This document shows positions 8,700-64,000 of a DNA stretch of 64,000 nucleotides, piece by piece (the first letter of the stretch is position 1; each line of letters starts with the position of its first letter). Location of the stretch: assembly GCF_036711975.1 (NCBI RefSeq), contig NC_091973.1, positions 6,324,001-6,388,000 of the forward strand, read 5' to 3'. The translations under genes and the position numbers were made by a program. The notes below the pieces were generated by a model. It worked only from the letters and a program-made list of their open reading frames with translations. It was not told the origin of the DNA and ran no database searches. The stretch comes from Onthophagus taurus (Eukaryota > Arthropoda > Insecta > Coleoptera > Scarabaeidae).

Positions 8700-9120
8700 A
8701 ACATTAAATTTACAAACGATAAACGATAATATAAATAAAATCGATAACAAAATTAAAAAAAAAAATTTATGACCTTGATTCAAATCGATAATATTTTTCA
8801 TAATGGTTACTTTTATATTTGCAATTCTGCAAATTTATGGACACTCAACAAAATAGCAGTTAAAAAAAAATTTTTTTTACAATTTTGTTATTATTAATAT
8901 CTTTTTCTGTTATTTGATAAGTTTTATTACGAAAAAGTTATATTTTAGACAAAATCATGAAAAACAAAATAAAGAAATAAGAAAAATAAGATCTCAGCGA
9001 TTCTTTTAAATCATCATAATTTTTGACATAATCTTCATTAATTCCCTAAAGTTATACTGAGAATTTCATATAACTTGCAATATATTAATGCAGTAATAAA
9101 ATGCAACATAGCTTAATAGT
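8700..9120. repeat. Family 1 flank, copy 1 of a direct duplication
   Basis: This AT-rich stretch is repeated almost base for base at 9595-10080 (shared blocks CGATAAACGATAATATAAAT, GACCTTGATTCAAATCGATA, GGACACTCAACAAAATAGCA). Each copy leads directly into a family 1 palindrome array through the same junction, AATTGGGTTTCTAGTTCTAGG. It appears to be the terminal unique part of a composite element. The same flank occurs in reverse complement at 29000-29100. Confidence 0.85.
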
Positions 9121-9590
9121 ATAGGAATTGGGTTTCTAGTTCTAGGTATAGTGTTAGTTCTAGTTTTATACTAGCACTATCACTAGAACTAACACTATAT
9201 CTAGAACTAGAATCATTCGGGTTTAGCCGCACGTCTCTCAAGACGGCTAAACCAGAATGATTTTAGTTCTAAGTATAGTGTTAGTTCTAGAAACAGTACT
9301 AGTGTGAAATTAGAACTAACACTATACCTAAAACTAGAATAATTCGGGTTTAGCCGCACGTCTCTAAAGACGGCTAAACCCGAATGATTCTAGTTCTAGG
9401 TATAGTGTTAATTCTAGTGATAGTGCTAGTCTAAAACTAGAACTAACACTATACCTAGAACTAGAAACATTTGGGTTTAGCCGCACGTCTCTCAAGACGG
9501 CTAAACCCGAATGATTCTAGTTCTAGGTATAGTGTTACTTCTAGTGATACTGCTAGTCTAAAACTGCCTGAAGACGCACGGCTAAACAAT
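9120..9590. repeat. Palindromic repeat array, family 1, copy A
   Basis: Tandem run of two alternating palindromes. The first has arms CATTCGGGTTTAGCCG and its complement around a 12-15-base loop containing CACGTCTCTCAAGA. The second has arms CTAGTTCTAGGTATAGTGTT and its complement around a loop of the TGATAGTGCTAGTGTAAAA type. Together they make a unit of about 125-130 bp. The array ends at a degraded copy of the first palindrome, and the flanking unique region then repeats at 9595. Confidence 0.9.
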
Positions 9591-9594
9591 AACA

Positions 9595-10080
9595 TAAAAT
9601 TTACAAACGATAAACGATAATATAAATAAAACCGATAACAAAATTTAAAAAAAAATTGTGACCTTGATTCAAATCGATAGGTTCGATAATATTTTTTATA
9701 ATGGTTACTTTTATATTTGCAATTCTGCACATTTACGGACACTCAACAAAATAGCAGTAACAAAAATTTTTTTTTTTACATTTTTTATTATTATTAATAT
9801 TTTTGTCTGTTATTTGATAAGTTTTATTACGAAAAAGTTATATTTTAGACAAAATCATGAAAAACAAAATAAAATAAAATGTTTCAGCTTTAATTTGAGA
9901 TATAAATTGTGTCTTAAGTCTCAAAAATAAGATCTCAGCAATTTTTTTTAAATCATCGTAATTTTTGACATAATCTTTGTTAGGGTTTGTTCCCCAAACT
10001 TATACCGGGAATTTCATATAACGTGCAATATGTTAATGCAGTAATAAAATGCAACATAGCTTAATAGTACAGGAATTGGG
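9595..10080. repeat. Family 1 flank, copy 2 of the duplication
   Basis: Near-identical second copy of 8700-9120, followed by a second, longer palindrome array. The pair shows that a flank-plus-array segment of about 890 bp was duplicated in tandem. Confidence 0.85.
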
Positions 10081-11400
10081 TTTCTAGTTCTAGGTCTAGT
10101 GTTAATTCTAGTTTTGCACTAGCACTGTTATTAGAATTAACACTATACCTAGAACTAGAATCATTCGGGTTTAGCCGTCTTGAGAGACGTTCGGCTAAAC
10201 CTGAATATTTCTAGTTCTAGGTCTAGTGGTAGTTCTAGTTTTACATTAGCACCATCACTAGAACTAACACTATACCTAGAACTAGAATCATTCGGGTTTA
10301 GCCGCACGTCTCAAGACGGCTAAACCTGAATGATTCTAGTTCTACGTATAGTGTTAGTTCTAGTGATAGTCTAAAACTAGAACTAACACTAGACCTAGAA
10401 CCAGAATCATTCGGGTTTAGCCGCACGTCTTTAAAGACGGCTAAACCCGAATGATTCTAGTTCTAGGTATAGTGTTAGTTCTAGTGATAGTCTAAAACTA
10501 GAACTAACACTAGACCTAGAACCAGAATCATTCGGGTTTAGCCGCACGTCTCTAAAGACGGCTTGTTACTTCTAGTAACAATGCTAGTGTGAAACTAGAA
10601 CTAACCCTATACCTAGAACTAGAATCATTCGGGTTTAGCCGTCTTTAGAGACGTGCGGCTAAACCCGAATGATTCTAGTTCTAGGTATAGTGTTAGTTCT
10701 AGTGATAGTGCTAGTCTAAAACTAGAACTGACACTAGACCGAGGACTAGAAACATTCGGGTTTAGCCGAACGTCTCTCAAGACGGCTAAACCCGAATGAT
10801 TCTAGTTCTAGGTATAGTGTTAGTTCTAGTAACAATGCTAGTGTGAAACTAGAACTAACCCTATACCTAGAACTAGAATCATTCGGGTTTAGCCGCACGT
10901 CTCTAAAGACGGCTAAACCCGAATGATTCTAGTTCTAGGTATAGTGTTAGTTCTAGTGATGGTGCTAATCTAAAACTAGAACTGACACTATACCTAGAAC
11001 TAGAAACATTCGGGTTTAGCCGCACGTCTCTAAAGACGGCTAAACCCGAATGATTCTAGTTCTATGTATCGTGTTAGTTCTAGTAACAATGCTAGTGTGA
11101 AACTAGAACTAACCCTATACCTAGAACTAGAATTATTCGGGTTTAGCCGCACGTCTCTAAAGACGGCTAAACCCGAATGATTCTAGTTCTAGGTATAGTG
11201 TTAGTTCTAGTGATAGTGTTAGTGTAAAACTAGAACTAACACTAGACCTTGAACTAGAAAATATCGAGTTTAGCCGTGCGTCAGATGCACGGTTCTAGTT
11301 TTAGTTTAATAAAGATATGCAACATAGTGAAATCTTATGTTAACTTGCACTGTCACTAGAACTAACATTAGACCTAGAACTAGAAACATTTAGACATGTT
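10080..11400. repeat. Palindromic repeat array, family 1, copy B
   Basis: About ten ~125-bp units with the same two alternating palindromes as at 9120-9590. The loop of the first palindrome is seen in both orientations: GCCGCACGTCTCTAAAGACG (for example near 10900) and GCCGTCTTTAGAGACGTGCG (near 10636). It ends in a spacer with a sequence like AATAAAGATATGCAACATAG, also seen at 34840, 35710 and 36010. Confidence 0.9.
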
Positions 11401-11600
11401 GCAATTTATGTGGTATTGTTATTGTATTTATATATTGCATCTTATGTGAAATTCACTGCATGTTCTATACAAATCATACCATAATACTTAATTATAATAT
11501 AATAATTTGAGTTTGCCTGCATGTTTTTTGCCATATTAACACAAAACGGTGTAACACATTGTAGCCAATAAGTTATCAAACATGATAAATTAGTTAGACT
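11390..11600. repeat. Family 1 central unique region
   Basis: Contains GACATGTTGCAATTTATGTG and, 150 bp later, AAAACGGTGTAACACATTGT and GCCAATAAG. The same blocks recur at 33780-34160 between two arrays and partly at 28230-28320 before another array. It looks like the centre of a composite element whose two sides are palindrome arrays. Confidence 0.75.
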
Positions 11601-13100: not shown

Positions 13101-13103
13101 CGG

Positions 13104-14350: not shown

Positions 14351-15419
14351 AATGTACATATTTATATCTTAACCCGTTTTTTATTTCAAAAAAATTACCA
14401 AACCCAATTAATATTAATTTATAAATTCCAAACCGCTCCGTTTACAATTTACAATTGTATTGTTCCTTACGCTTTTTGTACTTTCAAATTTTCGCATTCC
14501 ACAGCAAATTTAATTAACAAAAATACTATCAGACTAGTATTTCCGGTTTACGTATTGTATTCATTAACAACACCACGTATTTGCAAGTACAATTTCAAAA
14601 TAGAGGTCGAAGCAAAAAATACGAAAAATTAATCCAAATTGAATTATTATATGTATTCGTGTTTGCTTAGAAAATTTCCAACGCGCGTGTCCAATAGTTG
14701 TAATATATTACGTAAAAGAAGCACATTATTGTTATAAAACCCCACAAAATATCTATTGAATTGCAGATGTAAATGGATATTCATAGCCCAGCTGTTGCTT
14801 CCTATCGAAAATTACAATCGCCTTTCTTCCATACAATAGTTTCGATTTTAAAACTAGTTCAACTCCGAAAGCAATTCTATTTTAACAAGGAAATTAACAA
14901 AAAAATTCTCGTTATTTAGACATCTGAGAGCAAAAGTGTAAAAGAGCAATATTATTAAGAATAAATTTTATTTAAAAGTTATCTAATAGATAGCATATTT
15001 CGTAAAACCAAGTCTACCCTGCTTGAAGTTTGTTTATATAATAAATAAAATTATAAATAAAAACGAAACATGGGATGGTGAGATAATACTTTATAAATTA
15101 ATTTGAAATATTAAATAAAATTAATTGAATTAAAGCGCCACCTTTGATAACTACCTAAACTAAACCATATTTATTTGAGGTATTTACAACTATCTAATGT
15201 TAATATAGCTTTTAAATCAAAGATGTCCCAACAATATATTTTATACCAATTAAACACTCTGATTATGAAAGTTATATATTTTTCTTTTTTTATTATTTAA
15301 TTACATAATTTATATACTTTAGTAGAATACTTTTCTCTTAAAATCTGAAGAAAGAGTGAAACCTGAAAGAATCTTAATTAATAATTTATTATTATTATAA
15401 TAATAATTTATAAAATTAT

Positions 15420-18400: not shown

Positions 18401-19290
18401 GCAGAATTCGAACAAATTTTCGATCATTTCAAAAATTTATTTCTCAAGAACTAAACGTGGTTTTTCAAAACGGCTTTTTGCATTAAAAAGAGGATACTTT
18501 AATTAATAATTGGTGATATTTCCACAAGGATTATTCAAGAAATTAATTTTATAGCGAATTTTGAAAATTATCGCAACATCGAAAATTTTATCAAAACTTC
18601 AAGTATTATTTTCTCAAAAACTAAAGGTTATTTTTCAAAACGGATTGGTTCATTGGAAAAAGGGCACTTTTATTAACACTTTGGGAAATTTTCATAATCA
18701 CATTCCAACAACTAGATTTTATACGAATTTTTAAAACTTAATCGGCGAAAATTGTAAAATTCGAAAAAATTGTCGATCATTTCAAAAGTTTATTTCTCAA
18801 GAATTAAAAGTGATTTTTCAAAACGGTTTTTTGCATTAAAAAGAGGATACTTTAATTAATAATTGGTGATATTTCCTCAAGAATTATTCAAGAAATTAAT
18901 TTTATAGCGAATTTTGAAAATTATCGCTACATCGAAAATTTTATCAAAACTTCAAGTATTGTTTTCTCAAAAACTAAATGTTATTTTGCAAAACGGGTTA
19001 GTTCATTGGAAAGAGGACACTTTTATTAACACTTTGGGAAATTTTCATAATCACATTCCAAAAACTGGATTTTATACGAATTTTTAAAACTTAATCGGCG
19101 AAAATTGCAAAATTCGAAAAAATTGTCGATCATTTCAAAAGTTTATTTCTCAAGAATTAAAAGTGATTTTCCAAAACGGCTTTTTGCATTAAAAAGAGGA
19201 TACTTTAATTAATAATTGGCGATATTTCCACAAGAATTATTATAAGAAGACACTCTTATTAACACTTTGGGAAATTTTATAGCAAAATTC
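15420..19290. repeat. Tandem satellite, dimeric unit of ~340-356 bp, about 11 copies
   Basis: The landmark CTCAAAAACTAAAAGTTATT recurs at about 15471, 15811, 16153, 16507, 16858, 17213, 17567, 17923, 18261, 18612 and 18966, so the period is 338-356 bp. Each unit is a diverged dimer. One half has AAAGTTATTTTTCAAAACGG then GGAAAGAGGACACTCTTATT; the other has AAAGTGATTTTTCAAAACGG then TAAAAAGAGGATACTTTAAT. A three-unit block of 1,059 bp is duplicated nearly perfectly (about 16034-17126 and 17093-18185). Frames are closed, so it is non-coding. Confidence 0.95.
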
Positions 19291-19972: not shown

Positions 19973-22900
19973 ATGATGTTTCCGCATATGCTGGTAGTGT
20001 TTCTAGTAATATTTCTGCTGTTAGATGATGTCTTCGCCTACGACATCCACAAATATTCGCTGCTGATGCCGGAGATTCATCCGGATAAGGTGAGAAATAA
20101 CAAAATTATTGTTTTCTTTAAACAATATTGTCTCAAAAAATTTTATGATTATCGTATAAGATAGTAAACATTTCAAAATACTTATATTGATGCTAGTCGA
20201 AACAAAAGATTTAAAATTAACCAGTTTTAATTGCAGTTTTTTTAATAAGGTCAATAACTTGAGTAACCATTAATAATTATACTCTTTCATTAAATGTTAA
20301 GGACTTGTGCAAATATTATACATATGGCTTTTTGATTGTTGTTATCATTTCAGGATGAACTCTACTTATGCACACCTGTTCGAATAGTAAATAAGCAATA
20401 TTATATTGGTAAATTTGTTAAGTTTATTTTTCTTTTATATAAAACAAAAAAATATTTTTAGTTGGCTTTGAACCTAATGCAACAATGCATGATGTTCATC
20501 ATATGTTGTTATTTGGATGCTCAGTCCCTGGAACAACTGATGATGTATGGGATTGTGGAGAAATGGCTGCTTCAGATGGAAGCAAAAATATACGACGCGC
20601 TATACCTTGTGCTGAAGGATCCCATGTAATAAAAATAAAATTTTTTGGAGACAAAATGCAACTCTATGTATTTTTTAAGGTTTTATATGCTTGGGCTAGA
20701 GATGCAACAAAATTGAATCTTCCAGAGGATGTTGGTTTTCAAGTTGGTTTAGGCACAAAAATCAAGTACTTGGTTCTCCAAGTACATTATTCAAAAAAAT
20801 TCCCTGGAAATAAATTAGACAATTCTGGAATTTCTCTTCTATATACTGAGCAACCGTAAGAAAAATTACAGTTATTGACATCTTCTTCCATTTTTAAAGA
20901 CTGCTCCTAGGATTGTTCGCCTCAAGTATCAAGCACAGTACAGAAGGCGGTCGAGATTATTTCTCTTAACCTGCTTGAAATTTATAGAAGAAGTAATCTC
21001 GGCCGACTTCGAAGACGTCGGCCGCCCAAAATATTGTTCATAATATTTGAGGCGGCCGACGTCTTCGAAGTCTGCCGAGATTACTTTTTCCATAAATTTC
21101 GGAGAAACAATCTCCTTAGGTATTATTTATGATACTTAGGGCGGCCGAGATTACTTCTTCCATAAATTTCGGAGAAACAATCGCCTTAGGTATTACTTAT
21201 GATACTTAGGGCGGCCGACGTCTTCGAAGTCGGCCGAGATTACTTCTTGCATAAATTTCAAGCAGGTTAACAAAAACAATCTCGGCCGACTTCGAAGATA
21301 TTAAAATTATGCGTGATATGTTTTAACAGTTTAACAAACCTTTTATTATCTTTATATATTGACAATTAATAACAACATTCACTTTTTATTATATGTAACT
21401 ACTCGTAAAACATTAACGCACTCTTGATTGCTTTAATTGCTTGATTGGGATTGCTTTATGATATAACATTTCAACATTCCCCCTCAAGGCCAATCATAGT
21501 TATAAACTTTTCTAATTTTGGTTTTGGTAACGGCTTTGTTAGCACGTCGGCAATCATTTCTTCTGTTTGACAATATTTTAAATTGAAAACGTTATCTTCC
21601 AAAGCTTCTTATAAAATGATATTTTATATCTATGTGTTTAGTCCTACTATGATAAACGTTGTTTTTTGCCAACTTTTGACAACTTTGATTATCATTGTAA
21701 AGGACGATAGGTTTTTTTGAATTGAATTTTAATTCCGATAAGAATTTTTTCTCATACAGTGCTTCTTTAGCTGCTTCAGTAAGGCTCATATATTCGGCTT
21801 CTGTGCTTGATAAAGCAACAGTCCTTTGTTTTTTAGTTTCCCACGAGATTGCTGCGTTTGCCATTTTAAACAGATAACCAGTATAGGAGCGCCTATCATC
21901 TATAGATAATCCCCAATCTGCATCTGTATAACATTCCATTTCTTTCCCTGACGTTCTATAAGTTAGTTCCAAATTTATTGTTCCTTTTAAATACCTTAAC
22001 ACTCTTTTTGCGGCAATCCAATAACTCTCGTTGTAATTTGTGTTAAATTGACTTAAGAAGTTAACGCTAAATGTAATATCTGGTCTTGTACCAATTGATG
22101 CATACATCAAACTTCCGATCAGATTTTGATATGGATATTTTTTCATTATTTCTTCGTTTTTTACTTCAGGTTTTTGTAATTTTGCATTTGGGTCCATTGG
22201 TGTACTGACTGGTTTTGAGTTTTCCATACCAAATCGCTGTAGAATATCTTTTATATACTTCTTTTGTGAAATTTTGATCGTTGTCTCCTGTTTTATTTGT
22301 TTTAATTCTGTAGGGTCCATAGACAGTATTAAGTCCGATCGTGCTTTACTGTCCTTTATTTCCCATTCTCTAATCTTTTTGATTGATTCATCATTTTCCT
22401 CTATTAAAGTTGTTTTTTTTTTAATGTTCCATTTACATACTCCCATGCGTCATTTTTAATTAATATGGCTACCATTTGCAACTTCCATGTTTCCCAATTA
22501 TTCTTTTTAAAAGGATCAATTTTGAAACTTGTAGACATTTTTTTTTTATTTATTTTCGTTTGTCTTCTTATAAAGGTTTGTTTTTATTAACAGTTTTAAT
22601 AACAATTTAACAAACCTTTTATTATCTTTATATATTGACAATTAATAATAACAACATTCACTTGTTTTTTATTATATGTAACTACTCGTAAAACATTAAC
22701 GCACTCTTGATTGCTTTAATTGCTTGATTGGGATTGCTTTATGATATAACATTTCAACAGAAGATGTCGGCCGCCTTAGGTATTATTTATGATACTTAGG
22801 GCGGCCGACGTCTTCGAAGTCGGCCGAGATTACTTCTTGCATAAATTTGAAGCAGGTTAAAAAACAATCTCGGCCGACTTCGAAGATGTCGGCCGCCTTA

Positions 22901-25140
22901 GGTATTATTTATGATACTTAGGGCGGCCGACGTCTTCGAAGTCGGCCGAGATTACTTCTTGCATAAATTTCAAGCAGGTTAACAGAAACAATCTCGGCCG
23001 ACTTCGAAGATGTCGGCCGCCCTAGGTATTATTCATGATACTTGGGTCGGCCGAGATTGTTTTTTAATCTGCTTGAAATTTATGGAACAAATAATCTCGA
23101 CCAACCTAAGTATTGTTCGCGATGTAAGAAATCATCTCGGCCGACTTCGAAGACGTCGGCCGCCCAAAGTATTATTCATGATACTTGGGGCGGCCGAGAT
23201 TACTTCAAACAGGGTAGATTTGGTTTCACGTGTAATATGCTATTTATTAGAAGTATTATTCGTGATATAAGAATTAATCTCGGCCGACTTCGAAGACGTC
23301 GGCCGCCCCAAGTATCATGAATAATACTTTGGGCGGCCGACATCTTCGAAGTTGGCCGAGCTTGTTTTTTTAACCTGCTTGAAATTTATGGAACAAATAA
23401 TCTCGACCAACCTAAGTATTGTTCGTAATGTAAGAAATCATCTCGGCCGACTTCGAAGACGTCGGTCGCCCTAGGTATTATTCATGATACTTGGGGCGGC
23501 CGAGATTACTTCAAACAGGGTAGATTTGGCTTCACGTGTAATATGTTATCTATTAGAAGTATTATTCGTGATATAAGAATTAATCTCGGTGGACTTCGAA
23601 AACGTCGGCCGCCCCAACTGTCATGAATAATACTTTGGGCGGCCGACGTCTTCGAAGTCGACCGAGATGATTTCTTACATCGCGAACAATACTTAGGTTG
23701 GTCGAGATTATTTGTTCCATAAATTTTAAGTGGGTTAAAAAAACAATCTCGGCCGACATCTTCGAAGTTGGCCGACATCTTCGAAGTCGGCCGAGATTGT
23801 TTTTTTAACCCACTTAAAATTTATGGAACAAATAATCTCGACCAACCTAAGTATTGTTCGCGATGTAAGAAATCATCTCGGTCGACTTCGAAGACGTCGG
23901 CCGCCCAAAGTATTATTCATGATACTTGGGGCGGCCGAGATTACTTCAAACAGGGTAGATTTGGTTTCACATGTAATATGCTATCTATTAGAAGTATTAT
24001 TCGTGATATAAGAAATAATCTCGGCCGACTTCGAAGACATCGGCCGCCCCAAGTATCATAAATAATACTTTGGGCGGCCGACATCTTCGAAGTCGGCCGA
24101 GATTGTTTTTTCAACCTGCTTGAAATTTATGGAACAAATAATCTCGACCAACCTAAGTATTGTTCGCCATGTAAGAAATAATCTCGGCCGACTTCGAAGA
24201 CGTCGGCCGCCCAAAGTATTATTCATGATACTTGGGGCGGCCGAGATTACTTCAAACAGGGTAGATTTAGTTTCACGTGTAATATGCTATCTATTAGAAG
24301 TATTATTCGTGATATAAGAAATAATCTCGGCCGACTTCAAAGACGTCGGCCGCCCCAAGTATCATGAATAATACTTTGGGCGGCCGACATCTTCGAAGTC
24401 GGCCGAGATTGTTTTTTTAACTTGCTTGAAATTTCTCGAGAAATCATCTCGTTTTCGAAATCGGCGGCTCCAAGTATTGTTCGCCTCAAGTTTCACTTAT
24501 GTGTAGCTAATTAAATAATCTTATATTTCTTTCTGTCGTTTAAACAGCTGTTTCATCTTAAATTTTTTTTTAGTCAAAGTAAATTAGCGGGAGTTATACT
24601 ATTGGGTTCTGGCGGAACAATTCCAGCGAGATCAATATCCCACATGGAGATACAATGTGAAATTGAAGAAGAAAAAACGATCTATCCATTTGCTTATAGA
24701 ACACACACTCACAGTTTAGGTAAAGTTGTTAGTGGATATCGAGTTAGAAAAGGCAAGGAAGGAGATGATTGGTTATTGTTGGGTAAAAGAGATCCACTGA
24801 CACCGCAAATGTTTTATCCAGTTTTTAATAAAGATCCTATTTATGGTGGAGATATTTTAGCGGCGAGATGTACTATGGAAAATTATAGGGATCGAGATAC
24901 TTATGTGGGGTAATTAATAAGAAACACTTTACAATATCTAATTGAAGTAATTAATACAAACAATGTTTTAGCCCTACTAATAATGATGAAATGTGTAATT
25001 TCTACTTGATGTATTACGTGGAAAATGGCAACCCATTAGATACAACATTGTGTTTATCAGACGGTCCGCCAAAAGAATATTGGTATAATTCAAAATACAA
25101 TTTGAATAATATTCCCGATTTGGAAGCTTCTAAACTTTAA
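19973..25140 (+). CDS. Phm: Peptidylglycine alpha-hydroxylating monooxygenase
   Basis: Copper enzyme of the secretory pathway that hydroxylates C-terminal glycine-extended peptides, the first step of neuropeptide amidation. Exons 19973-20089, 20354-20408, 20462-20625, 20680-20855, 24574-24909 and 24972-25140 total 1017 nt, 338 residues plus TAA. Residues 1-22 are a hydrophobic signal peptide ending near VFA. Copper ligands are visible: CuA His70 and His71 (HDVHHM) and His148 (LQVHYS); CuB His215 and His217 (HTHSLG) and Met290 (NDEMCNFYLMYY). KRDPLTPQMFY is also conserved. As in Drosophila Phm, the lyase (PAL) domain is absent; the protein ends after LNNIPDLEASKL. The 54-bp third intron (20626-20679) is a multiple of three without stops. 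The fourth intron (3.7 kb) contains family 2 repeats and a Copia element. Confidence 0.96.
20900..21300. repeat. Palindromic repeat array, family 2, left part
   Basis: Alternating palindromes built from CTCGGCCGACTTCGAAGACG and its complement, with short loops of the AAGTATCATGAATAATACTT type between GGGCGGCC arms. It lies in the fourth intron of Phm and was once continuous with the array at 22760-24450; the Copia element now separates them. Confidence 0.88.
21301..22759 (-). mobile_element. Internally deleted Copia-type LTR retrotransposon
   Basis: Two direct repeats of about 160-180 bp (21319-21476 and 22579-22759, ending TTTCAACA on the plus strand) flank a minus-strand coding core. A polypurine tract (GAGGGGGAA on the minus strand, plus 21477-21486) sits directly before the 3' LTR. 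GAAGAT occurs on both sides of the element, fitting a target-site duplication. The core retains a Gag-like start (FKIDPFKKNNWETWKLQM) joined to the end of the reverse transcriptase and to RNase H. Integrase, protease and most of the RT are absent, so it could only have moved with help from another copy. The 18 bases at 21301-21318 are not in the other LTR, so the left boundary is uncertain. Confidence 0.88.
21592..22446 (-). CDS. Copia-type RT end and RNase H, open frame of the deleted element
   Basis: An open frame of about 284 codons on the minus strand. KKYIKDILQRFGMENSKPVSTPM is the characteristic end of a Copia reverse transcriptase; YPYQNLIGSLMYASIGTRPDI and the RNase H blocks TDADWG, AISWETKKQRTVALSSTEAE and YNDNQSCQKLA follow, ending in RTKHIDIKYHFIR. 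Upstream, separated by a frame break, is a Gag-like start near 22535. The frame is intact over RNase H, implying a fairly recent insertion. It is a transposon protein, not a host gene. Confidence 0.85.
   Translation of the reverse strand: MGVCKWNIKKKTTLIEENDESIKKIREWEIKDSKARSDLILSMDPTELKQIKQETTIKISQKKYIKDILQRFGMENSKPVSTPMDPNAKLQKPEVKNEEIMKKYPYQNLIGSLMYASIGTRPDITFSVNFLSQFNTNYNESYWIAAKRVLRYLKGTINLELTYRTSGKEMECYTDADWGLSIDDRRSYTGYLFKMANAAISWETKKQRTVALSSTEAEYMSLTEAAKEALYEKKFLSELKFNSKKPIVLYNDNQSCQKLAKNNVYHSRTKHIDIKYHFIRSFGR
22760..24450. repeat. Palindromic repeat array, family 2, right part
   Basis: Units of about 302 bp (start motif CTGCTTGAAATTTATGG at 23071, 23373, 24116 and, altered, at 23815 and 24421). 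Each has several nested palindromes with GGCCGAC..TTCGAAG..GTCGGCC arms. One block, about 23505-23780, is inverted relative to the others. The innermost loop appears as CCCAAAGTATTATTCATGAT and as its reverse complement. Open frames rich in Arg/Pro read across these units repeat with the units and are not genes. Confidence 0.9.
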
Positions 25141-28109: not shown

Positions 28110-29010
28110 TATTTTTTTTTTTTTTAATTCGGAGGCGTGTTTAAACAAAAATTACACTAGGTAAATTCAAGATGTTGTCCGTCGCTTAGAAACATTCGGA
28201 TTCAGCTCAAGACGGGTAAATCCGTGTCATATCAACACAAAACGGTGTAACACATTGTAGCCAATAAAGAAAATACGATATCAAACATGATAAGTTGTCA
28301 GATTTCTGGCAAGCTAGTTTAGTTAGTGATAGTGTCAAATTAGAACTAACACTAGACCGAGAACTAGAAACATTCGGGTTTAGCCGCACGTCTCTCAAGA
28401 CGGCTAAACCCGAATGATTCTAGTTCTAGGTCTTGTGTTAGTTCTAGTAATAGTGCTAGTGTAAAACTAAAATTAACACTACTAGACCGAGAACTAGAAA
28501 CATTCGGCTTTAGCCGTCTTTTTAGACGTACGGCTAAATCCGAATGATTCTAGTTCTAGGTCTTGTGTTAGTTCTAGTGATAATACTAGTATAAAACTAG
28601 AACTAACACTATACCGAGAACTAGAAACATTCGGGTTTAGCCGTCTTTTTAGACGTACGGCTAAACCCGAATGATTCTAGTTCTAGGTCTTGTGTTAGTT
28701 TTAGTTTTACACTAGCACTATCACTAGAATTAACACTATACCTAGAATTAGAATCATTCGGGTTTAGCCGTCTTTAGAGACGTGCGGCTAAACCCGAATG
28801 TTTCTAGTTCTAGGTATAGTGTTTAGTTCTAGTTTTTGATTAGCACTATCACTAGAACTAACACTATACCTACAACTAGAATCATTCGGGTTTAGCCGTC
28901 TTGAGAGACGTTCGGCTAAACCCGAATGTTTCTAGTTCTAGGTATAGTGTTAGTTCTACATAGTAACAGTGCCAGTGCAAAACTAGAACTGACCCTAGAA
29001 CTAGAAACCC
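28110..29010. repeat. Palindromic repeat array, family 1, copy C
   Basis: Starts with TTCGGAGGCGTGTTTAAAC, also present at 32430, and a short version of the family 1 centre (ACACAAAACGGTGTAACAC at 28233). It continues as 5-6 palindromic units. Both loop orientations occur: CGCACGTCTCTCAAGACG at 28385 and CGTCTTTTTAGACGTACG at 28515. It ends in the reverse complement of the 8700-9120 flank. Confidence 0.88.
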
Positions 29011-32430: not shown

Positions 32431-33790
32431 GGAGGAGTGTTTAAATAAAAATTACACTAGGAAAATTCAAGATGTTGCCCGTCACTTAGAAACATTCGGA
32501 TTCAGATCAAAACGGCTAAATCCGAATGATTTATGTTAGTTCTAGTGATAGTACTAGTATAAAATTAAAATTAACACTAAACCGAAAACTAGAAACATTC
32601 GGATTTAGCCGCACGTCTCAAAAGACGGCTAAATCCGAATGATTCTAGTTCTAGGTTTAGTATTAGTTCTAGTGATAGTATAAAACTAACACTAGACCTA
32701 GAACTAGAAATATTCAGGTTTAGCCGCACGTCTCTCAAGACGGCTAAATCCGAATGATTCTAGTTTTAGGTCTTGTGTTAGTTCTAGTTTTACACTAACA
32801 CTAACACAAGACATAGAACTAGAATCATTCGAGTTAGTTCTAGTAATAGTGTTAGTGTAAAACTAGAACTAACACAAGACCTAGAACTAGAATCATTCGG
32901 GTTTAGCCGTCTTTTGAGACGTACGGCTAAACCCGAATGATTCTAGTTCTAGGTCTTGTGTTAGTTCTAGTGATAATGCTAGTATAAAACTAGAACTAAC
33001 ACTAAACCTAAAACTAGAAACATTCGGGTTTAGCCGCACGTCTTTCAAGATGGCTAAACCCGAATGATTCTAGTTCTAGGTCTTGTGTTAGTTCTAATGA
33101 TAATGCTAGTGTAAAACTAGAACTAACACTAGACCTAGAACCAGAATCATTCTGGTTTAGCCGTCTTGAGACGTGCGGCTAAACCCGAATGATTCTAGTT
33201 CTAGGTCTTGTCTTAATTCTAGTGATAATGCTAGTCTAAAACTAGAACTAACACTAGATCGAGAACTAGAAACATTCGGGTTTAGCCGTCTTTTAAGACG
33301 TACGGCTAAACCCGAATGATTCTAGTTCTAGGTCTTGTGTTAGTTCTAGTGATAATGCTAGTATAAAACTAGAACTAACACTAGACCTAGAACTAGAAAC
33401 ATTCGGGTTTAGCCGCACGTCTCTCAAGACGGCTAAACGCGAATGATTCTAGTTCTAGGTCTTGTGTTAGTTCTAGTGATAATGCTAGTATAAAACTAGA
33501 ACTAACACTAGACCTAGAACTAGAATCATTCGGGTTTAGCCGTCTTGAGACGTGCGGCTAAACCCGAATGATTCTAGTTCTAGGTCTTGTATTAATTCTA
33601 GTGATAATGCTAGTCTAAAACTAGAATTAACACTAGACCTAGAACTAGAATCATTCGGGTTTAGCCGTCTTGAGACGTGCGGCTAAACCCGAATGATTCT
33701 AGTTCTAGGTCGTGTGTTAATTCTAGTGATAATTCTAGTCTAAAACTAGAACTAACACTAGATCTAGAACTAGAAACATTCAGACATGTT
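32430..33790. repeat. Palindromic repeat array, family 1, copy D
   Basis: Starts with the same terminal sequence as copy C (TTCGGAGGAGTGTTTAAAT). It contains about ten units with a spacing of about 125-130 bp between GGTTTAGCCG motifs (33022, 33153, 33280, 33404, 33534, 33659). Loop orientation changes from unit to unit: CACGTCTTTCAAGA at 33025, TCTTGAGACGTGCGG at 33162, CACGTCTCTCAAGA at 33413. The central region GACATGTTGCAATTTATGTG follows at 33784. Confidence 0.92.
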
Positions 33791-34170
33791 GCAATTTATG
33801 TGGGACAAAGTAAGTAGGTACGCCACGGTTTCTATGGAAATATATTGTAGTATATTGCATTTTAAGTGAAATTCACTGTATGTTCTATACAAAATATACC
33901 GTAGAAATAAGAGCAAAATACCACTAGTAAAAAGCTTCTAAGTCTAATGAAATGAGAACTCTTTTGTTTGAGCTTTCTACAAGCTCCTTTTTCGAAGCAA
34001 CCTCAGTTAAATTAAGCAAAATGGATGAGGTTGCTCGAATAATTTGTGGTTGCCTTCGTGTTTTGTGCCATATTGATACAAAACGGTCTAACACATTATA
34101 GCCAATAAGGAAAATAAGATATCAAACATGATAAGTTGTTAAACTTCTATCAAGCTAATTTATTTAGTGA
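33780..34170. repeat. Family 1 central unique region, long form
   Basis: Carries both blocks seen at 11390-11600 but with about 150 extra bases between them (including AAGCTTCTAAGTCTAATGAA). It separates array D from the short array at 34180 and so shows that the complete element has arrays on both sides of the centre. Confidence 0.75.
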
Positions 34171-34179
34171 TAGTGTAAA

Positions 34180-34420
34180 ACTAGACTTAACACAAAACCT
34201 AGAAGTAGAATCATTCGGGTTTAGCCGCACGTCTCTCAAGACGGCCAAACCCGAATGATTCTAGTTCTAGGTCTAGTGTTAGTTCTAGTGATAGTGCTAG
34301 TGTAAAACTAGAACTAGAAAGTTTCAGGTTTAGCTGTGCGTGTGAAGACTATTTTCACTATTTTCTAGTTCTAGGTGTAGTGTTAGTTCTAGTTTTAGTT
34401 CAATAAATATATATAGTACT
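34180..34420. repeat. Palindromic repeat array, family 1, copy E (short)
   Basis: One and a half units following the central region, ending in a TTTAGTTCAATAAATATATA spacer. The DNA from 34420 to 34870 is AT-rich, without a gene. Confidence 0.85.
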
Positions 34421-34869
34421 TGTCAAAGTACTTGTCAAATACTTGTCAATGTAAATTTTTTTAGGGTTTTTGTTGATATTATCTAGGACTCTTATAAAAT
34501 TTATGTTGTTTTCGTGATTTTTAGTAACATTTTCAGTAACTAAATAGTTGAGGTTAAAATACTAATAAATTTTTAGATAAATACGATTTTAACGAAGTAC
34601 ATATTTGTTGTAAAAACGTGCTACATAGTAATTAAATAGAACAAGTCGTACTTTTCTAGGTAAATAAATGGCAAATAAGCACCTCACAACATTTTTGATG
34701 CACCTTTTCTTTTTGAATAACGAAAGCTCAAGTATCAGTGTGACATATTTATTTCAAAACATGATAAAACAAAACTCCTTGTTAATTTTTCCAACTTTAC
34801 AACAATTTAGCAGGTATTATAGAAAAAAAAATGAATTATACAACATAGTAATATTTTATGCTAACTAGC

Positions 34870-36010
34870 GCTAGCTACCACTAGAACTAGAACTAACACT
34901 AGACCGAGAACTAGAAACATTCGGATTTTGCCGCACGTCTTTCAAGACGGCTAAATCTGAATGATTCTAGTTCTAGGTCTTGTGTTAGTTCTAGTGATAG
35001 TGTAAAACTAGAACTAACACTAGACCTAGAACTAGAAACAATCGGGTTTAGCCGTCTTTTTAGTGATAGTGTTAGTGTAAAACTAGAACTAACACTAGAC
35101 CGAGAACTAGAAACAATCGGGTTTAGCCGTTTTTTTAGACTTACGGCTAAACCCGAATGATTCTAGTTCTAAGTCTTGTGTTAGTTCTAGTGATAGTGTT
35201 AATGTAAAACTAGAACTAACACTAGACCGAGAACTAGAAACATTCGGATTTAGCCGCACGTCTTTCAAGATGGCTAAACCCGAATGATTCTAGTTCTAGG
35301 TCTTGTGTTAGTTCTAGTGATAGTGTTAGTGTAAAACTAGAACTAACACTAGACCTAGAACTAGAAACAATCGGGTGTAGCCGTCTTTTTAGACGTACGG
35401 CTAAACCCGAATGATTCTAGTTCTAGGTCTTGTGTTAGTTCTAGTGATAGTGTTAATGTAAAACTAGAACTAACACTAGACCGAGAACTAGAAACATTCG
35501 GGTTTAGCCGCACGTCTTTCAAGACGGCTAAACCCGAATGATTCTAGTTCTAGGTTTTGTGTTAGTTCTAGTGATAGTGTTAATGTAAAACTAGAACTAA
35601 CACTAGACCGAGAACTAGAAACATTCGGGTTTAGCCGCACGTCTTTCAAGACGGCTAAACCCGAATGATTCTAGTTCTAGGTCTTGTGTTAGTTCTAGTT
35701 TTACTTCAACAAAAATATACAACATACTAATATCTTATGCTAACTAGTGCCTACTACTCACTATCACTAGAACTAACACTAGACCGAGAACTAGAAACAT
35801 TCGGATTTAGCCGCACGTCTTTCAAGACGGCTAAACCCGAATGATTCTAGTTCTAGGTCTTGTGTTAGTTCTAGTGATAGTGTTACTGTAAAACTAGAAC
35901 TAACACTAGACCGAGAACTAGACACATTCAGATTTAGCCGCACGTCTTTCAAGACGGCTAAACCCGAATGATTCTAGTTCTAGGTCTTTTGTTAGTTCTA
36001 ATTTTAGTTG
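34870..36010. repeat. Palindromic repeat array, family 1, copy F
   Basis: Eight or so units of the same two palindromes. Several neighbouring units are nearly identical (for example 35440-35560 and 35560-35690), which points to recent expansion. An AT-rich spacer at 35700-35760 resembles that at 34830. Confidence 0.9.
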
Positions 36011-38750
36011 AATAAAAATATGTAACATGGTGATATTATATGGTAACTAAAAGTATAGTTCTTATTTCTTACTTGATATTGTGAATATTGAACTTAACCT
36101 ATTTTTTTGATAAATCGATGGTAACCGTGTCTTCTTGCATGTGGTGAAATGCGTGACAACGAGTTATTCCCATCAGAAAAGGGGGGAATGTTTATTTTAT
36201 TTTGCGAGGTGGAAAAATCTATAGAAAGAACGATACAAAAAGATGTGATTAAAAATGTTGTTGATGTAATTTGAGTATCGATTGAGACGGGTCCATTATT
36301 AACGATTGTAATTGTCGGGTAGTTCGATAACTTTGGCCCCTTTTATAATACAGTATCGTTTCCACGAGCCTTGTGGGGTAAACCGAAAAGATTGGAACGC
36401 GTGGCCAGACACGTGTGTTGGAAACAGCTGTGTCACGATCCGGGGGACATTTACTAAGAGACATGTGTGCGTTTTTCGTCTCTGGTTTGAGCAGAAGGTG
36501 AACGTTCCAATTTTTGTAAACTATTTTCGGAAAGTCTCCTTAACCCCACACACAAAGTTTTATAACATCTCTACCTCTCCGCGTGGCACGATAATCGAAT
36601 GCTATACTCCACTAACAGGATTATTGCGTTGGTCACTATTGTTAATATAATTTGTGCTTCCTGTAATTTATACCAGACCGCAAACTCGCCTCTTTAACGC
36701 TCCTCGTGAATTCGAAAGGATAATATTTTTTTAAAAAATTTTATAATTATTATTATTGCATCTTCTAACAATAATTTCATTTACCGTCCTATATCACCGC
36801 ACTTCAAAGCGTATCATTATCGTATCGTAATCTTGGCCGTGCTGATAATTATTTGCTGTTGTTTGATGCCCAAAAGATTGATTGGCACCTACTTTATCGA
36901 GTTGCTGATATTGAAATAAATAATAAAAAGTCTATTAAGAAGTCATGTAATGTAGTGCAAAAAAATTAAGAAATTAAGGATGAGGCAAAAATGATTTGGC
37001 AAGACAAGGAATGTTATTTAAGTTTCTGATACCGTCAGAAATGATTTGATGTTAATTAATTTTGACTTATTTCTTGTTTATCATGGTGGAACATAAAGCT
37101 GGTCTGATTGGATATTCTAACATTTCAAAAAGCTATCCCATCATGCCAAAGAACGGTTTTCATTTAATGTTGTTTCTTTAATTATTTGAGTCTAAAACTG
37201 AAAAAAACATTTTGCAATAAATAAAACCCGAATAGCAGCGTTCCTTTTATTTATGTAATAGAAAACGTTGCTTATGTATAATTATTATCTCTTACAATGA
37301 TGTTTAACCTCTCCGACCTAAGATAACGGTGCCCGAAGGGAGATAACGGATGTATTAAACGGCATTTTTCTCGTATTCATTAAAATTGTACTGAAAGAAA
37401 TTCGGCAAAAAAAATTCAAAATTGTCTCATTTTTTTATGATATCATCGCAAGCAATTAAAATTTATGAATTCATCAAACAGCAGCGGTTCCTGTATCGTA
37501 CAAGTTGTGTGTTGTTGGGTCGCTAATTTAATTGTTTTTTTTATTTTTTTTTTTTTCGTTGCGTAATCGAATGTTAGCGAAGCATTGTCCATACACATCG
37601 TTTCTTTTTTTTTTTTTTAGATTGTCGTTACTCAAAATAGTTCGAATAAGTATAAATAAAAGGAAAAGTACTAATTTTATCTGACCGACTGTAATCGTGC
37701 TGACGTCATGATTAAACGATCGTACACACAATAAATACATTGCGAGTTTTCACCGTTTAAAAAAAATTTTGTTATGTAATTATTTTGTGTTAAATCACGT
37801 GATTTATTTTGATAAATTCGTAAAAGTTTTTTTTGTATTGGGAGTAGGTTTTCCGAATAATTTATACATTTTCTGTGCTCGGTAGACCTACTTTGTACTT
37901 TTGTGCTTTATATTTAATTAATACTAAATTTTTGTGTCAAATGCGGTTAATGATAATGTTCGAAACGGAAGAGGGACACATTTGTGTTGCGGTTGTAGCC
38001 CCCATACGGCGAACAGATGTATGCAGAAATTGTAGCTGTAACTTTTTTTCGATTTTGGCCGTTTAAATATTACTCATCTAATTATCTAAAGTTTTGATAA
38101 ATATAAAAATAAAAATCAAAAAGTTAATAATCAGCAACGATTAACTGTTAGTAAGTATACAAATATTTTGCATTATCAAAAAGGAAAGAATTTTGTGCGA
38201 TATATAATTTGTGCGTGGAAAAATTTGTTATCTTCAAATCGATTTTTAATTTCCATTACAGGTGCTTCCATTTTATCACCACCTCCTTTTTTGTTTTTTC
38301 GCCACAAATCTTTTTGCCACATTCAGTCTTAAGTCAGATTTTGACAAGCCTAAAAGGTGCTCACTTCTAATTGTTTGATGTTTGTTGAAGACCTTCATTA
38401 AACAAGTAAGAATTTTTTTTAAGTTACGTCTTAGATTTACTGTTCCACTGCGTGGGGCATGAATGGCTTGCTAGCACGTGCTGCCCCACGTGTCCTTCGA
38501 AAGGGTTGGAAAACCCTGTCGTTGTCGTCGTTGCTTTGGTGGTGGCGTACGTGCGTCACGGCCCTGCCTATTGATTGTAGATGCGTGGAGACGATATCTA
38601 CAGTCACGGCCGCTTCTGCACGACCCTCGTTGTCATGACTACTTCTTTCGTCACTCCTCTCCCCCGACGTTACCAATCCCCCAACGTTATTTTTTTATTT
38701 TCAAATTTTCCACACTAACAACCTTTTTAATTAAATAAAATTTTATACTG
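36011..38750. other. Presumed Mef2 5' intron, unique part
   Basis: Mostly AT-rich non-coding DNA with GC-richer patches at about 36300-36700 and 38430-38660 that could be regulatory. No protein family, RNA gene or transposon domain was recognised. Confidence 0.4.
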
Positions 38751-59785: not shown

Positions 59786-59791
59786 AATAAA
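59786..59791 (+). other. Polyadenylation signal of imd
   Basis: AATAAA 92 bp after the stop codon; 59800-60195 holds the short spacer and the upstream region of TRAPPC8 and no other gene. Confidence 0.6.
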
Positions 59792-60880: not shown

Positions 60881-60884
60881 TCAG

Positions 60885-62745
60885 GAAGAATCGTTTATCT
60901 TCACTTCGCCAAGGTCGCTTGCGGGCGAGGCGCTAGATTTAAGTCATAAAATTAGTTAAGTTGAGGTTCGTATTTATAACGTGTCAATCCCAGCGCCTCG
61001 CCCATAAGCGAACTCCGCGAAATGAAAATAAACGATTTCTTATACAAGTATTGTGTACTTAATTTATTTTCCAAGACATCAAGTGAACGATTTTATCTAT
61101 TAACGCCGAGGTCGCTTGCGGGCGAGTCGCTAGATTTGATACTTTATAAACACAAACCTTAATTCAATGAGATTTGGCATTTAGGAGCTAAGATACCAGT
61201 TCCACCGCCTCGCCCGCAAGCGACCTCGGCGAAGTGAAGATAAACGATTTCTTATACAAGTATTGTTTACTTAGTTTACTTTCCAAGACATCAAGTGAAC
61301 GACTTCATCTAATACCGCCGAGGTCGCTTGCGGGCGAGGCGCTGGGTTTGACACATTATAAATACGAACCTCAACTCAACTAATTTTATGATTAAAATCT
61401 AGCGCCTCGCCCGCAAGCGACCTCGGCGAAGTGAAGATAAACGATTTCTTATACAAATAACTATTGTGTATCTAATACCGCCGAGGTCGCTTGCGGGCGA
61501 GGCGCTGGGATTGCCACATTATGAATACGAACCTCAACTCAACTAATTTTATGACTCAAATCTAGCGCCTCGCCCACAAGCGACCTCGGCGAAGTGAAAA
61601 TAAACGATTTCTTATACAAGTACCTATTGTGTATCTAATACCGCTGAGGTCACTTGCGGGCGAGGCGCTGGGATTGATACATTATGAACACGAACCTGAA
61701 CTCGACTAATTTTATAACCACGTGATATCAAATCTAGCGCCTCGCCCGCAAGCGACCTCGGCGAAGTGATGATAAACGATTTTTCATACAAGTATTGTGT
61801 ACTTAATTTACTTTCCAGGACATCAAGTGAACGATTTCATCTAATATCGCCGAGGTCGCTTGCGGGCGAGGCGCTGGAACTGTTATCTTAGCTCCTAAAT
61901 GCAAAATTTCATTGAATTAAGGTTTGTGTTTATAAAGTATTAGACCTAGCGCCTCGCCCGCAAGCGACCTCGGCGAAGTGATGATAAACAGTTTCTCATA
62001 CAAGTACTGTGTACTTAGTTTACTTTCCAAGACGTCAAGCGAACAATTTCATTTAATACCGCCGAGGTCGCTTGCGGCCGAGGCGCTGGGTTTGTCACAT
62101 TATAAATACGAACCTCAACTCAACTAATTTTATGACTCAAATCTAGCGCCTCGCCCGCAAGCGACCTCGGCGAAGTGAAGATAAACGATTTCTAATACAA
62201 GTACCTATTGTGTATCTAATACCGCCGAGGTCGCTTGCCGGCGAGGCACTGGGTTTGTCACATTATAAATACGAACCTCAACTCAACTAATTTTATGACT
62301 CAAATCTAGCGCCTCGCCCGCAAGCGACCTCGGCGAAGTGACGGTAAACGATTTCTCATACAAGTACCTATTGTGTATCTAATAGGAGGTCGCTTGCGGG
62401 CGAGGCGCTGGGATTGATACGTTATGAACACGAACCTCAACTCGACTAATTTTATAACTACGTGATATCAAATCTAGCGCCTCGCCCGCAAGCGACCTCG
62501 GCGAAGTGAAGATAAACGATTTCTCATACAAGTATTGTGTACTTAATTTACTTTCCAAGACATCAAGTGAACGATTTCATCTAATACCGCCGAGGTCGCT
62601 TGCGGGCGAGGCGGTGGAACCGCTATCTTAGCTCCTAAATGCAAAATTTCATTGAATTAAGGTTAGTGTTTATAAAGTATTAGGCCTAGCGCCTCGCCCG
62701 CAAGCGACCTCGGCGAAGTGATGATAAACAATTTCTCATACAAGT
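60885..62745. repeat. Palindromic repeat array, family 3
   Basis: Alternates GCCGAGGTCGCTTGCGGGCG (at about 61106, 61317, 61483, 61640, 61850, 62060, 62222, 62588) with its reverse complement CGCCCGCAAGCGACCTCGGC, so every ~27-bp arm is opposed to another. AT-rich loops of 60-90 bp lie between the arms and spacers ending in GATAAACGATTTCTTATACA join the units, giving periods near 165 or 210 bp. Two loop types occur, each in both orientations: one with TTAGCTCCTAAATGCAAAAT (61893, complement at 61165-61200), the other with ACGAACCTCAACTCAACTAA (61365, complement at 60955). Confidence 0.92.
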
Positions 62746-63217
62746 ACTGAGAGATGTGTAACACTGCGCTGCGCGGCGCAATTGAGTTAACTCAGTACAG
62801 TGTGTTACGCGCGCTAATACCCAACTTTAAAATGAGTCAACTCAATTGTGCCGAGTTAGACGCAACGCACTCGTAGGCCCAAAGCAGTTTAACGCACAAC
62901 CGCTATGGCGCGGGCGACATAAAACTTAGGGCTGGTATGTTCAAATATCTATAAAGTCCGCAATAGCTATACGACAGATCTGTCAGATTTATCAGCCTGT
63001 TATAGCCCTTCAAATGAGCAAAAATAATTTCGACATTGTACAAAACGCGTTATGTACTCCTTATATTCACGTTTTGTATACCGCCACCGTAACATATTCT
63101 CAGTTACGGAGTTTAACAGGGCTAAAAATCTGACAGATTTGTCAAATAGCGATTGAAGATTTATAGGTATGTAGTTGAAATGCGAGCGATAGATGTGATG
63201 CATCAGCAACTGTATTA
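62746..63217. mobile_element. Insertion into family 3, including a small inverted-repeat element
   Basis: The array stops at about 62745 and resumes near 63855. The left part is unusually GC-rich (CGCTGCGCGGCGCAATTGAG) with an imperfect palindrome around AACTCAGT. At about 62950-63180 arms of around 60 bp face each other (AGATCTGTCAGATTT and TAGCCCT on the left, AGGGCTA and AATCTGACAGATTTG on the right), which marks a small MITE. The PIF/Harbinger element at 63218 follows directly. Confidence 0.6.
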
Positions 63218-63803
63218 AGCCGGATTTATATTTGTCTGACGTGTTATGTCGTGATGCGCTCTGACGTAATGGTTAGTGTTCACATTTATATGTTGTGTTC
63301 TGACGCACTCTGGCGATATTTTGAATCAATACAATCGTAGCACTCAGAGAGTTCATACGTGGGTTTATAATGTTTTCCCATGAATCTTCTGATTCAAATT
63401 ATGAAGAAGATATTCATTTCATGGTACTGGCAACTGTTTTAAAAAAAGAAAAAGAGAAGATATTGGGTTCATCCAGTGAACAAAAAGAGAGAGGCTAGAG
63501 GCGAATTTCACGGCCTGATTAAAGAGCTTGAGAGCGATGCTGATAATGTTAAATGTAATTAAATTTAATATCGAAAGAAAGAAGAAACGCAAATCTGACG
63601 AGTCATAAGACAGGTGTACACTTGTCTGATCTGTCGTTATGCGTCACTTCCCACTCCACTGCTCTGACGGACATCGGGATCGTTGCTGATGCGACACAAC
63701 ACATGGCGACACACAAATATAAATCTCACCATAGTAAATGTATTCAACCGATACCGTTCTGACGCGTCACAATACGACATGTCAGACAAATATAAATCCG
63801 GCT
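63218..63803 (+). mobile_element. PIF/Harbinger non-autonomous element (586 bp)
   Basis: Terminal inverted repeats begin AGCCGGATTTATATTTGTCT on both ends (25 bp or more matching). They are flanked by the 3-bp direct repeat TTA at 63215-63217 and 63804-63806, the target-site type of the PIF/Harbinger superfamily. Inside is a short, frame-shifted remnant of the transposase N-terminus. Most of the transposase, including the catalytic DDE domain, is missing. Confidence 0.88.
63370..63562 (+). pseudogene. Harbinger transposase N-terminus, frame-shifted remnant
   Basis: Starts MFSHESSDSNYEEDIHFMVL, an acidic opening common in Harbinger transposases. After a run of A residues the matching frame moves by one: KKKKRRYWVHPVNKKREARG, then EFHGLIKELESD, the conserved block before the DDE nuclease. 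It ends at a TAA with no catalytic domain. Confidence 0.75.
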
Positions 63804-63854
63804 TTAATACATTGCGCTAACTCACTTAGGCGCGCCAGTATCAGTGTGTCAGTG

Positions 63855-64000
63855 TGGTATCATAGCTCCTAAATGTCAAATTTCATTGAATTAAGGTTTG
63901 TGTTTATAAAGTATCAGACCCAGCGCCTCGCCCGCAAGCGACCTCGGCGAAGTGAAAATAAACGATTTCTTATACAAGTACCTATTGTGTATCTAATACC
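63855..64000. repeat. Family 3 array, continuation after the insertions
   Basis: Resumes with the TAGCTCCTAAATGTCAAATT loop, GCGCCTCGCCCGCAAGCGAC arm and GATAAACGATTTCTTATACA spacer of the array at 60885-62745, and runs off the window end. Confidence 0.9.

What the first reader, a model, noticed from the sequence alone, without database searches (positions are those of the whole stretch)
8700..64000. Three unrelated palindrome arrays share one architecture
Family 1 (9120-11400, 28150-29010, 32430-36010), family 2 (20900-24450) and family 3 (60885-64000) have no obvious sequence in common. All are tandem arrays of GC-rich inverted arms around short AT-rich loops, with units of about 125-300 bp, lying in introns or just outside genes. 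One transcript over any of them would fold into a series of long hairpins. Convergence of three families on one design suggests a common process, such as a foldback-type transposon lineage, palindrome-driven amplification, or selection for hairpin RNA. This is the best candidate here for something not yet described.
Basis: partly seen in the sequence, partly recalled or inferred. Interest (0 to 1): 0.82.

Follow-up and report, generated by a model that had tools for sequence, protein, structure and literature searches.

The report
Palindrome arrays, one restricted to X
An insect, probably a beetle, carries three unrelated kinds of hairpin-forming repeat array that share one layout, and one of them is almost confined to a single chromosome that is probably the X, which could make it a tag for that chromosome, although no function has been shown.

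Summary
The three palindrome-array families are real, and their units share no sequence beyond chance. All have one layout: a short core in alternating orientation, fixed spacing on one side, variable AT-rich loops on the other. Neighbouring cores are inverted in 243/250 (F1), 235/281 (F2) and 234/276 (F3) pairs. One transposon lineage for all is not supported. Some F1 arrays end in a shared terminus (TA|CAGTGAATTTCAC...); in one window array it has an inverted partner. F2 is joined to an AT-rich ~175-bp satellite at 10 of 31 F2 loci, against 0 of 27 F3 and 0 of 12 F1 loci. F3 shows no shared ends. Unexpectedly, F2 is nearly confined to contig C8 (7.2% of the genome): 13 of 14 copies in a complete list, at least 96 of 116 in another. 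C8 is probably the X: both plexin places lie on it and PlexA is X-linked in Tribolium; against it, ephrin 1 of 3 and PAX 0 of 9 places. Cores diverge less than loops between loci, most clearly in F3 (28/28 locus pairs; F2 65/78). Best reading: transposon- and satellite-linked palindromes expanded and flipped by palindrome-driven recombination; F2 is an X-restricted euchromatic satellite. Function untested.

The parts
9054..9565 (.). F1 array, first block: left terminal-repeat-like segment (9054 on) and palindrome units of 127 bp
10002..11461 (.). F1 element: left terminal-repeat-like segment (from about 10002), palindrome array, right end CAGTGAATTTCAC on the minus strand at 11439-11458
28337..28958 (.). 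F1 array B (127-bp palindromic units); no clear terminal repeat
32512..33878 (.). F1 array C; right end CAGTGAATTTCACTTAAAAT (minus strand 33859-33878) preceded by TA; no left end recognised
34211..34400 (.). short F1 block
34875..36049 (.). F1 arrays D and E
20940..21300 (.). F2 array, left part, apparently in an intron of the PHM-like gene
21324..22759 (-). Copia-like retroelement fragment between two LTR pieces, nested in the F2 array (named by eye)
22760..24450 (.). F2 array, right part; core GGCCGACTTCGAAGACGTCGGCCG in both orientations, many pairs 52 bp apart start to start
20443..24913 (+). PHM-like gene: Cu2_monooxygen in ORF 20443-20859 and Cu2_monoox_C in ORF 24515-24913, on either side of the F2 array
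60907..62715 (.). F3 array: 20 cores CGCCTCGCCCGCAAGCGACCTCGGCG (0-4 mismatches) in strictly alternating orientation
63924..64000 (.). F3 core and unit after about 1.1 kb of other repeat DNA; cut by the window end; further F3 cores in the next 8 kb (L016)

Best explanation
Three repeats of different origin converged on arrays of alternating inverted cores because a palindrome, once present, recombines with itself. SHOWN: some F1 arrays end in a common terminus (CAGTGAATTTCAC, preceded by TA in 5 of 6 cases) and one window array has an inverted, diverged copy of it on the other side; F1 occurs on at least eight contigs. F2 cores are joined, at a third of the F2 loci fetched, to an AT-rich satellite of about 175 bp that resembles satellite at the starts of three contigs, and nearly all F2 copies listed are on contig C8. 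F3 is dispersed and over-represented on C8. Cores alternate, spacing on one side is fixed, loops occur in both orientations within arrays, and cores diverge less between loci than loops do. INFERRED: arrays grow and flip by hairpin extrusion, template switching or exchange between arms; F1 moved as a non-autonomous TIR transposon; C8 is the X chromosome; F2 is thus an X-restricted euchromatic satellite, comparable in distribution to the 1.688X repeats of Drosophila. NOT SHOWN: any function, such as binding a protein, giving dsRNA, or marking the X.
For: Alternation: F1 243/250, F2 235/281, F3 234/276 neighbouring cores inverted (overlapping locus L014 left out, which one search had counted as well); commonest spacing on one side 30, 52 and 110 bp. 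Loop flips: of the F1 loops in the window 21 point one way and 13 the other, interspersed. F1 ends: 6 arrays on C3, C5, C7 and C8 end in the same 20-mer (0-2 mismatches; a seventh match, 4 mismatches, is at an F2 locus); in the window 2 matches against 0.02 expected; left and right ends of array A align with score 62 against a maximum of 42 in 300 shuffles, and 58 against 36 for its tandem second copy. F2 and satellite: 10 of 31 F2 loci against 0 of 27 F3 and 0 of 12 F1 loci; likeness to 3 of 6 contig-start pieces. F2 on C8: 13 of 14 (binomial P 2e-14; 9 of 10 when clustered, P 5e-10), at least 96 of 116. Exact core: 1342 copies, 100 listed: 47 on C1-C7 (197 Mb) and 53 on C8; 1242 not listed. 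X: the plexin family has matches in 2 places, both on C8; PlexA is listed on x in Tribolium (PMC3411249); the X is kept across beetles (PMC11753715, abstract and passages); (TTGGG)n at the start of C1, reported for four scarabaeoid beetles (PMC8233369, passages). Core against loop: F3 28/28, F2 65/78, F1 84/120 and 44/55 locus pairs.
Against: C8 as X: 0 of 9 PAX places on C8, although eyeless, twin of eyeless and shaven are on Drosophila element F (recalled); ephrin only 1 of 3 places; no sex-specific coverage; species not identified; (TTGGG)n is also reported in a lacewing (title). F1 as element: of six array edges fetched to test it, 2 (L097, L100) have the end and 4 (L095, L096, L098, L099) do not; both ends together were seen only for window array A; with the C end the same left segments score below the best shuffle (40 against 43, 36 against 39), and the B edge gives 34 against 33 and 25 against 35; shuffles there were of single bases; no transposase was sought. 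F2: 21 of 31 loci show no satellite in the stretch fetched, and locus sizes differ between families (1-10 kb). Core conservation: the F1 difference is small (9% against 13%). The loci were fetched because they contain cores, most large ones on C8, so locus counts are not a random sample. No empty site was recognised.
Confidence: 0.6

Rival explanations
1. Neutral satellite drift: F2 spread only locally along one chromosome by short-range copying, and the conserved core merely reflects arm-to-arm gene conversion.
For: Higher-order repeats of 505 bp in L022 and 307 bp in L025 show local copying; F3 is also over-represented on C8 (10 of 34 copies, 7 of 27 clusters).
Against: Arm-to-arm conversion does not explain cores conserved between distant loci while loops differ; listed F2 matches are scattered over 8.9 Mb of C8.
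Confidence: 0.35
2. F2 is a functional X-recognition element: its hairpin transcripts or a protein bound to its core mark the X for dosage compensation or for pairing.
For: Near confinement to C8, core less diverged than loop, strong predicted hairpins, position apparently in a gene intron, and the precedents of 1.688X (abstract of PMC11228850) and other X-specific satellites of Drosophila (abstract of PMC4079201).
Against: No RNA, chromatin or genetic data; X-specific satellites can accumulate without function; X identity of C8 not proven.
Confidence: 0.13
3. All three families are central repeats of one lineage of foldback or Helentron-type non-autonomous transposons that exchanged their inner repeats.
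For: Some F1 arrays have a shared end; satellites inside Helentron-like elements are known in an oyster (abstract of PMC7492417) and inside the foldback element Tetris (abstract of PMC4079207). Families lie close together in places: F1, F2 and F3 cores within 10 kb in L024, and F2-like cores on both sides of an F3 array in L028.
Against: No shared ends: F3 has no module shared by 3 other loci beyond 110 bp from a core (32 loci); the F2 modules shown in that call are satellite; no common sequence among units.
Confidence: 0.13
4. Assembly artefact: palindromes created by collapsed or chimeric repeats.
For: Repeat arrays are error-prone in assemblies; three contig lengths are round numbers.
Against: 111 core clusters in the fetched sequence and matches on many contigs with the same layout and diverged copies.
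Confidence: 0.02

Closest known systems
1.688X and other X-specific euchromatic satellites of Drosophila (abstracts of PMC11228850 and PMC4079201)
   Same: Short repeat arrays scattered along one chromosome and rare elsewhere.
   Different: F2 is built of alternating inverted GC-rich cores with AT-rich loops; 1.688X units are AT-rich, about 359 bp (abstract), head to tail (recalled). X-linkage of C8 is inferred; function untested.
Foldback-type element Tetris of Drosophila virilis (abstract of PMC4079207)
   Same: Tandem repeats belonging to an element with terminal inverted repeats give rise to satellite-like arrays, as proposed for F1.
   Different: Tetris repeats are ~220-bp tandem copies within the TIRs; F1 units are palindromes of about 127 bp with loops in both orientations.
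TCAST families dispersed in Tribolium euchromatin (passages of PMC5844308; one table part and one passage of PMC3411249)
   Same: Satellite-related repeats in introns and near genes of a beetle.
   Different: TCAST copy number overall follows chromosome size and is lowest on the X; F2 is the reverse, nearly confined to C8.
Bacterial BIMEs (REP sequences); recalled, no call
   Same: Conserved palindromic cores in alternating orientation with a small set of spacers.
   Different: Bacterial, mobilised by RAYT transposases; resemblance in layout only, no claim of kinship.

Membership tests
TIR DNA transposon / foldback-type element (F1) | Terminal inverted repeats around the array | tested here: inconclusive
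   Shared right end at 6 arrays; inverted left copy for window array A only (62 against 42, 58 against 36); not above the best shuffle for array C and hardly or not for B; 4 of 6 edges fetched for the test lack the end.
TIR DNA transposon / foldback-type element (F1) | Target-site duplication (TA) | tested here: inconclusive
   TA directly before the end in 5 of 6 arrays; the partner TA of one insertion and an empty site were not seen.
TIR DNA transposon / foldback-type element (F1) | Transposase of an autonomous relative with the same ends | not tested
   No genome searches left (12 of 12 used).
X-specific euchromatic satellite (F2) | Confined to one chromosome | tested here: met
   13 of 14 in a complete list and at least 96 of 116 in another on C8; whether C8 is a whole chromosome was not tested.
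X-specific euchromatic satellite (F2) | That chromosome is the X | tested here: inconclusive
   Plexin 2 of 2 places on C8, PlexA X-linked in Tribolium; ephrin 1 of 3, PAX 0 of 9.
X-specific euchromatic satellite (F2) | Small RNA or chromatin role in dosage compensation | not testable with these tools
   No RNA or chromatin data held.
One common family for F1, F2 and F3 | Shared unit or end sequence | tested here: not met
   No excess similarity of one unit each; no shared F3 module.
Retrozyme or other catalogued structured RNA | Match to an Rfam family such as hammerhead | tested here: not met
   0 matches at gathering score, window only.
Helentron-type HINE element | Conserved non-repeat flanks on both sides of the central array | tested here: not met
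   F3: 0 modules in 32 loci; F2: the shared modules shown are satellite. Helitron end motifs and F1 in this respect were not tested.

The most novel reading that the evidence does not exclude
F2 is a beetle X-identity signal: a conserved palindromic core, scattered in hairpin arrays along one chromosome, read out by a dedicated protein or by siRNA from its hairpin transcripts, evolved independently of the Drosophila 1.688X system, and built from a palindrome joined to a satellite.
Probability: 0.13. Interest if true: 0.88.

Novelty: new variant of a known kind. Interest (0 to 1): 0.56.

Why it matters
How a cell recognises its X chromosome outside a few model animals is open (recalled), and dosage compensation has been reported in Tribolium beetles (passages of PMC11753715) without, as far as I know, a known recognition signal. 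A repeat almost confined to the probable X, with a core that changes less than its surroundings, gives a concrete sequence to test. Independently, three unrelated repeats with the same alternating-palindrome layout in one genome are material for the question how palindromes turn into satellites.

Tried and rejected
One lineage for all families: rejected for lack of shared ends or sequence. Catalogued RNA such as hammerhead retrozymes: no Rfam match in the window. Viral or prokaryotic source of the cores: no exact match in viral contigs for F1, F2 and F3 patterns, nor in genome contigs for F3 (F1 and F2 not sought there). Published core sequence: no paper of the library holds any of six 16-19-base strings. 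Empty-site search inside the fetched sequence: 2268 candidate pairs; the ones visible looked like array-to-array matches, but the output was cut, so this is no proof of absence. A 62-base F2 pattern gave only 2 copies, both in the window, and was too narrow to be of use. F3 as inside of a MITE: several F3 loci lie near a terminus like ACCCTGTATA, which I read as later MITE insertions into TA-rich loops; not counted. Muller-F identity of C8 by ephrin and PAX did not give the expected result. Faulty counts: searches used a regular-expression mode that skips weaker matches; one search is the corrected scan; one search counted locus L014 together with L029, which contains it, and recounts without it (F3 244/286 became 234/276). 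treat the same data with different mismatch limits and averaging (F2 core divergence 5.6% and 9.8%).
Full report
OBSERVATION. The window is C8:6324001-6388000 of a 290.8-Mb genome in 33 contigs. The arrays exist at about the given places, and the excess of nearby inverted repeats is limited to them apart from a MITE-like element at 5.2-5.8 kb. Nine array pieces that I chose are all far more stable than their dinucleotide shuffles when folded as RNA (z -5.1 to -16.1). In 219 kb of other sequence held here, mostly flanks of arrays, a similar scan gave 9 runs, all single inverted repeats. One unit of each family compared with the others shows no excess similarity.

LAYOUT. With a scan allowing mismatches, neighbouring cores within 400 bp are inverted in 243 of 250 F1, 235 of 281 F2 and 234 of 276 F3 pairs, in 17, 25 and 28 sources (which leaves out a locus that overlaps another and was counted). 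One side has a commonest spacing (F1 30, F2 52, F3 110 bp start to start), the other varies. In the window the F3 cores from 60907 to 62690 alternate without exception, 20 in a row. F1 loops in the window point one way in 21 cases and the other way in 13, interspersed, so loops have flipped relative to their neighbours.

ORIGINS DIFFER. F1: six arrays on C3, C5, C7 and C8 end in CAGTGAATTTCACTTAAAAT with 0-2 mismatches, preceded by TA in five. Array A of the window has an inverted, diverged copy of this end on its other side (62 against a shuffled maximum of 42, and 58 against 36 for its tandem second copy). Against this, the same left segments score below the best shuffle when compared with the end of array C, the edge of array B gives nothing clear, and of six edges fetched to test the idea only two have the end (L097 and L100, not L095, L096, L098 and L099). 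I read F1 as a non-autonomous TIR element of Tc1/mariner type (type recalled from the TA and CAGTG) whose inner palindrome became a tandem array and often outgrew or lost its ends. F2: 10 of 31 F2 loci, 0 of 27 F3 loci and 0 of 12 F1 loci contain an AT-rich satellite of about 175 bp (loci are 1 to 10 kb long). It resembles three of six 60-bp pieces from contig starts, those of C4, C17 and C22. The F2 core pair sits next to satellite units in L022 and L025, and a single core in L074. F3: no module away from the cores is shared by three other loci among 32.

CHROMOSOME RESTRICTION. The exact F2 core has 1342 copies (659 + 683, control pattern 0); the 100 places listed, in contig order, are 47 on C1-C7 (197 Mb) and 53 on C8, and 1242 are not listed. 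A one-base variant has 116 copies: 100 listed, 4 on C1-C7 and 96 on C8, 16 not listed. A rarer variant is listed in full: 14 copies, 13 on C8 and 1 on C7. All listed matches of a 421-base F2 query are on C8, between 0.15 and 9.04 Mb, though only 40 candidates were scored and the query is itself from C8. C8 is 7.2% of the genome, giving P = 2e-14 for 13 of 14 and 5e-10 for 9 of 10 clustered loci. The F3 variant list is complete: 34 copies on nine contigs, 10 on C8 (7 of 27 clusters, P 0.003). Listed F1 matches are on eight contigs.

IS C8 THE X? For: the plexin cytoplasmic family gives 6 matches in 2 places, both on C8. PlexA is listed on chromosome x in Table 1 of PMC3411249 (passage; the part of the section read ends before that row). 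PMC11753715 states that the ancestral X is maintained across beetles (abstract and passages), and PMC10715201 that element F is the ancient insect X (abstract and passages). The start of C1 is (TTGGG)n, reported for four scarabaeoid beetles in PMC8233369 (passages) and for a lacewing (title, listing). Against: ephrin 1 of 3 places on C8 and PAX 0 of 9 places (14 matches). I put X at about 0.75.

CONSTRAINT. Between loci, core divergence is below loop divergence in 28 of 28 F3, 65 of 78 F2, 84 of 120 and 44 of 55 F1 locus pairs; mean divergence 5.3% against 19.4% (F3), 9.8% against 18.5% (F2), 9.1% and 9.2% against 13.3% (F1). Loops could align in the better of two orientations, which favours loops. 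Units had to have recognisable cores, which favours cores; most cores have 0 or 1 mismatch (F2 267 of 370 and F3 225 of 326 at up to 8 and 9 mismatches, the loosest class being partly chance). This fits protein binding, hairpin function or biased conversion and does not tell them apart.

CONTEXT. The F2 array in the window lies between the two domains of a PHM-like gene. A Copia-like fragment between two LTR pieces (95% over 160 bp) sits inside it; GAAGAT stands on both sides (sequence), which fits a target-site duplication within an F2 core, so the array is probably older than that insertion.

PUBLISHED STATE. X-specific satellites are known in Drosophila (abstracts of PMC4079201 and PMC11228850). 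Satellites enriched on X or Y are known in a flea beetle (passages of PMC11846391). In Tribolium the dispersed TCAST repeats are fewest on the X (passages of PMC5844308). Satellite repeats inside mobile elements are known (abstracts of PMC7492417 and PMC4079207). Searches (15 of 35, 12 of 81 and 10 of 10 papers listed) showed no title or abstract start that describes alternating-palindrome arrays confined to an insect X; only open-licence papers are covered.

VERDICT.

Noticed in passing
window 15440-19241: AT-rich tandem array with a 353-bp unit, direct repeats without palindromes.
   Followed up: no
window 38836-40664 and 51457-52367: Two further direct tandem arrays (499-bp unit at 98% and 304-bp unit at 96% matches).
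   Followed up: no
window 5195-5815: MITE-like inverted repeat of about 600 bp with ends like GTACAGGTGTC / GACACCCTGTAC.
   Followed up: partly
L075, L077, L078, L083, L084, L092, L093: Several F3 loci lie near a terminus like ACCCTGTATA, as if MITEs insert in the TA-rich loops (by eye).
   Followed up: no
L028:4530-4560 and 6560-6590: An F3 array has F2-core-like motifs on both sides in the same orientation, about 2 kb apart.
   Followed up: partly
L020:4300-5800: An F2 array lies between what looks like a LINE 3' tail and a reverse-transcriptase coding stretch (by eye).
   Followed up: no
L095 and L097: F1 arrays lie near an aquaporin-like gene (C6) and a Hand-like bHLH gene (C8); names from reading the DNA by eye, no search.
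   Followed up: no
window 14906-14968: Isolated fragment of the 175-bp satellite, 6 kb from the F2 array.
   Followed up: no
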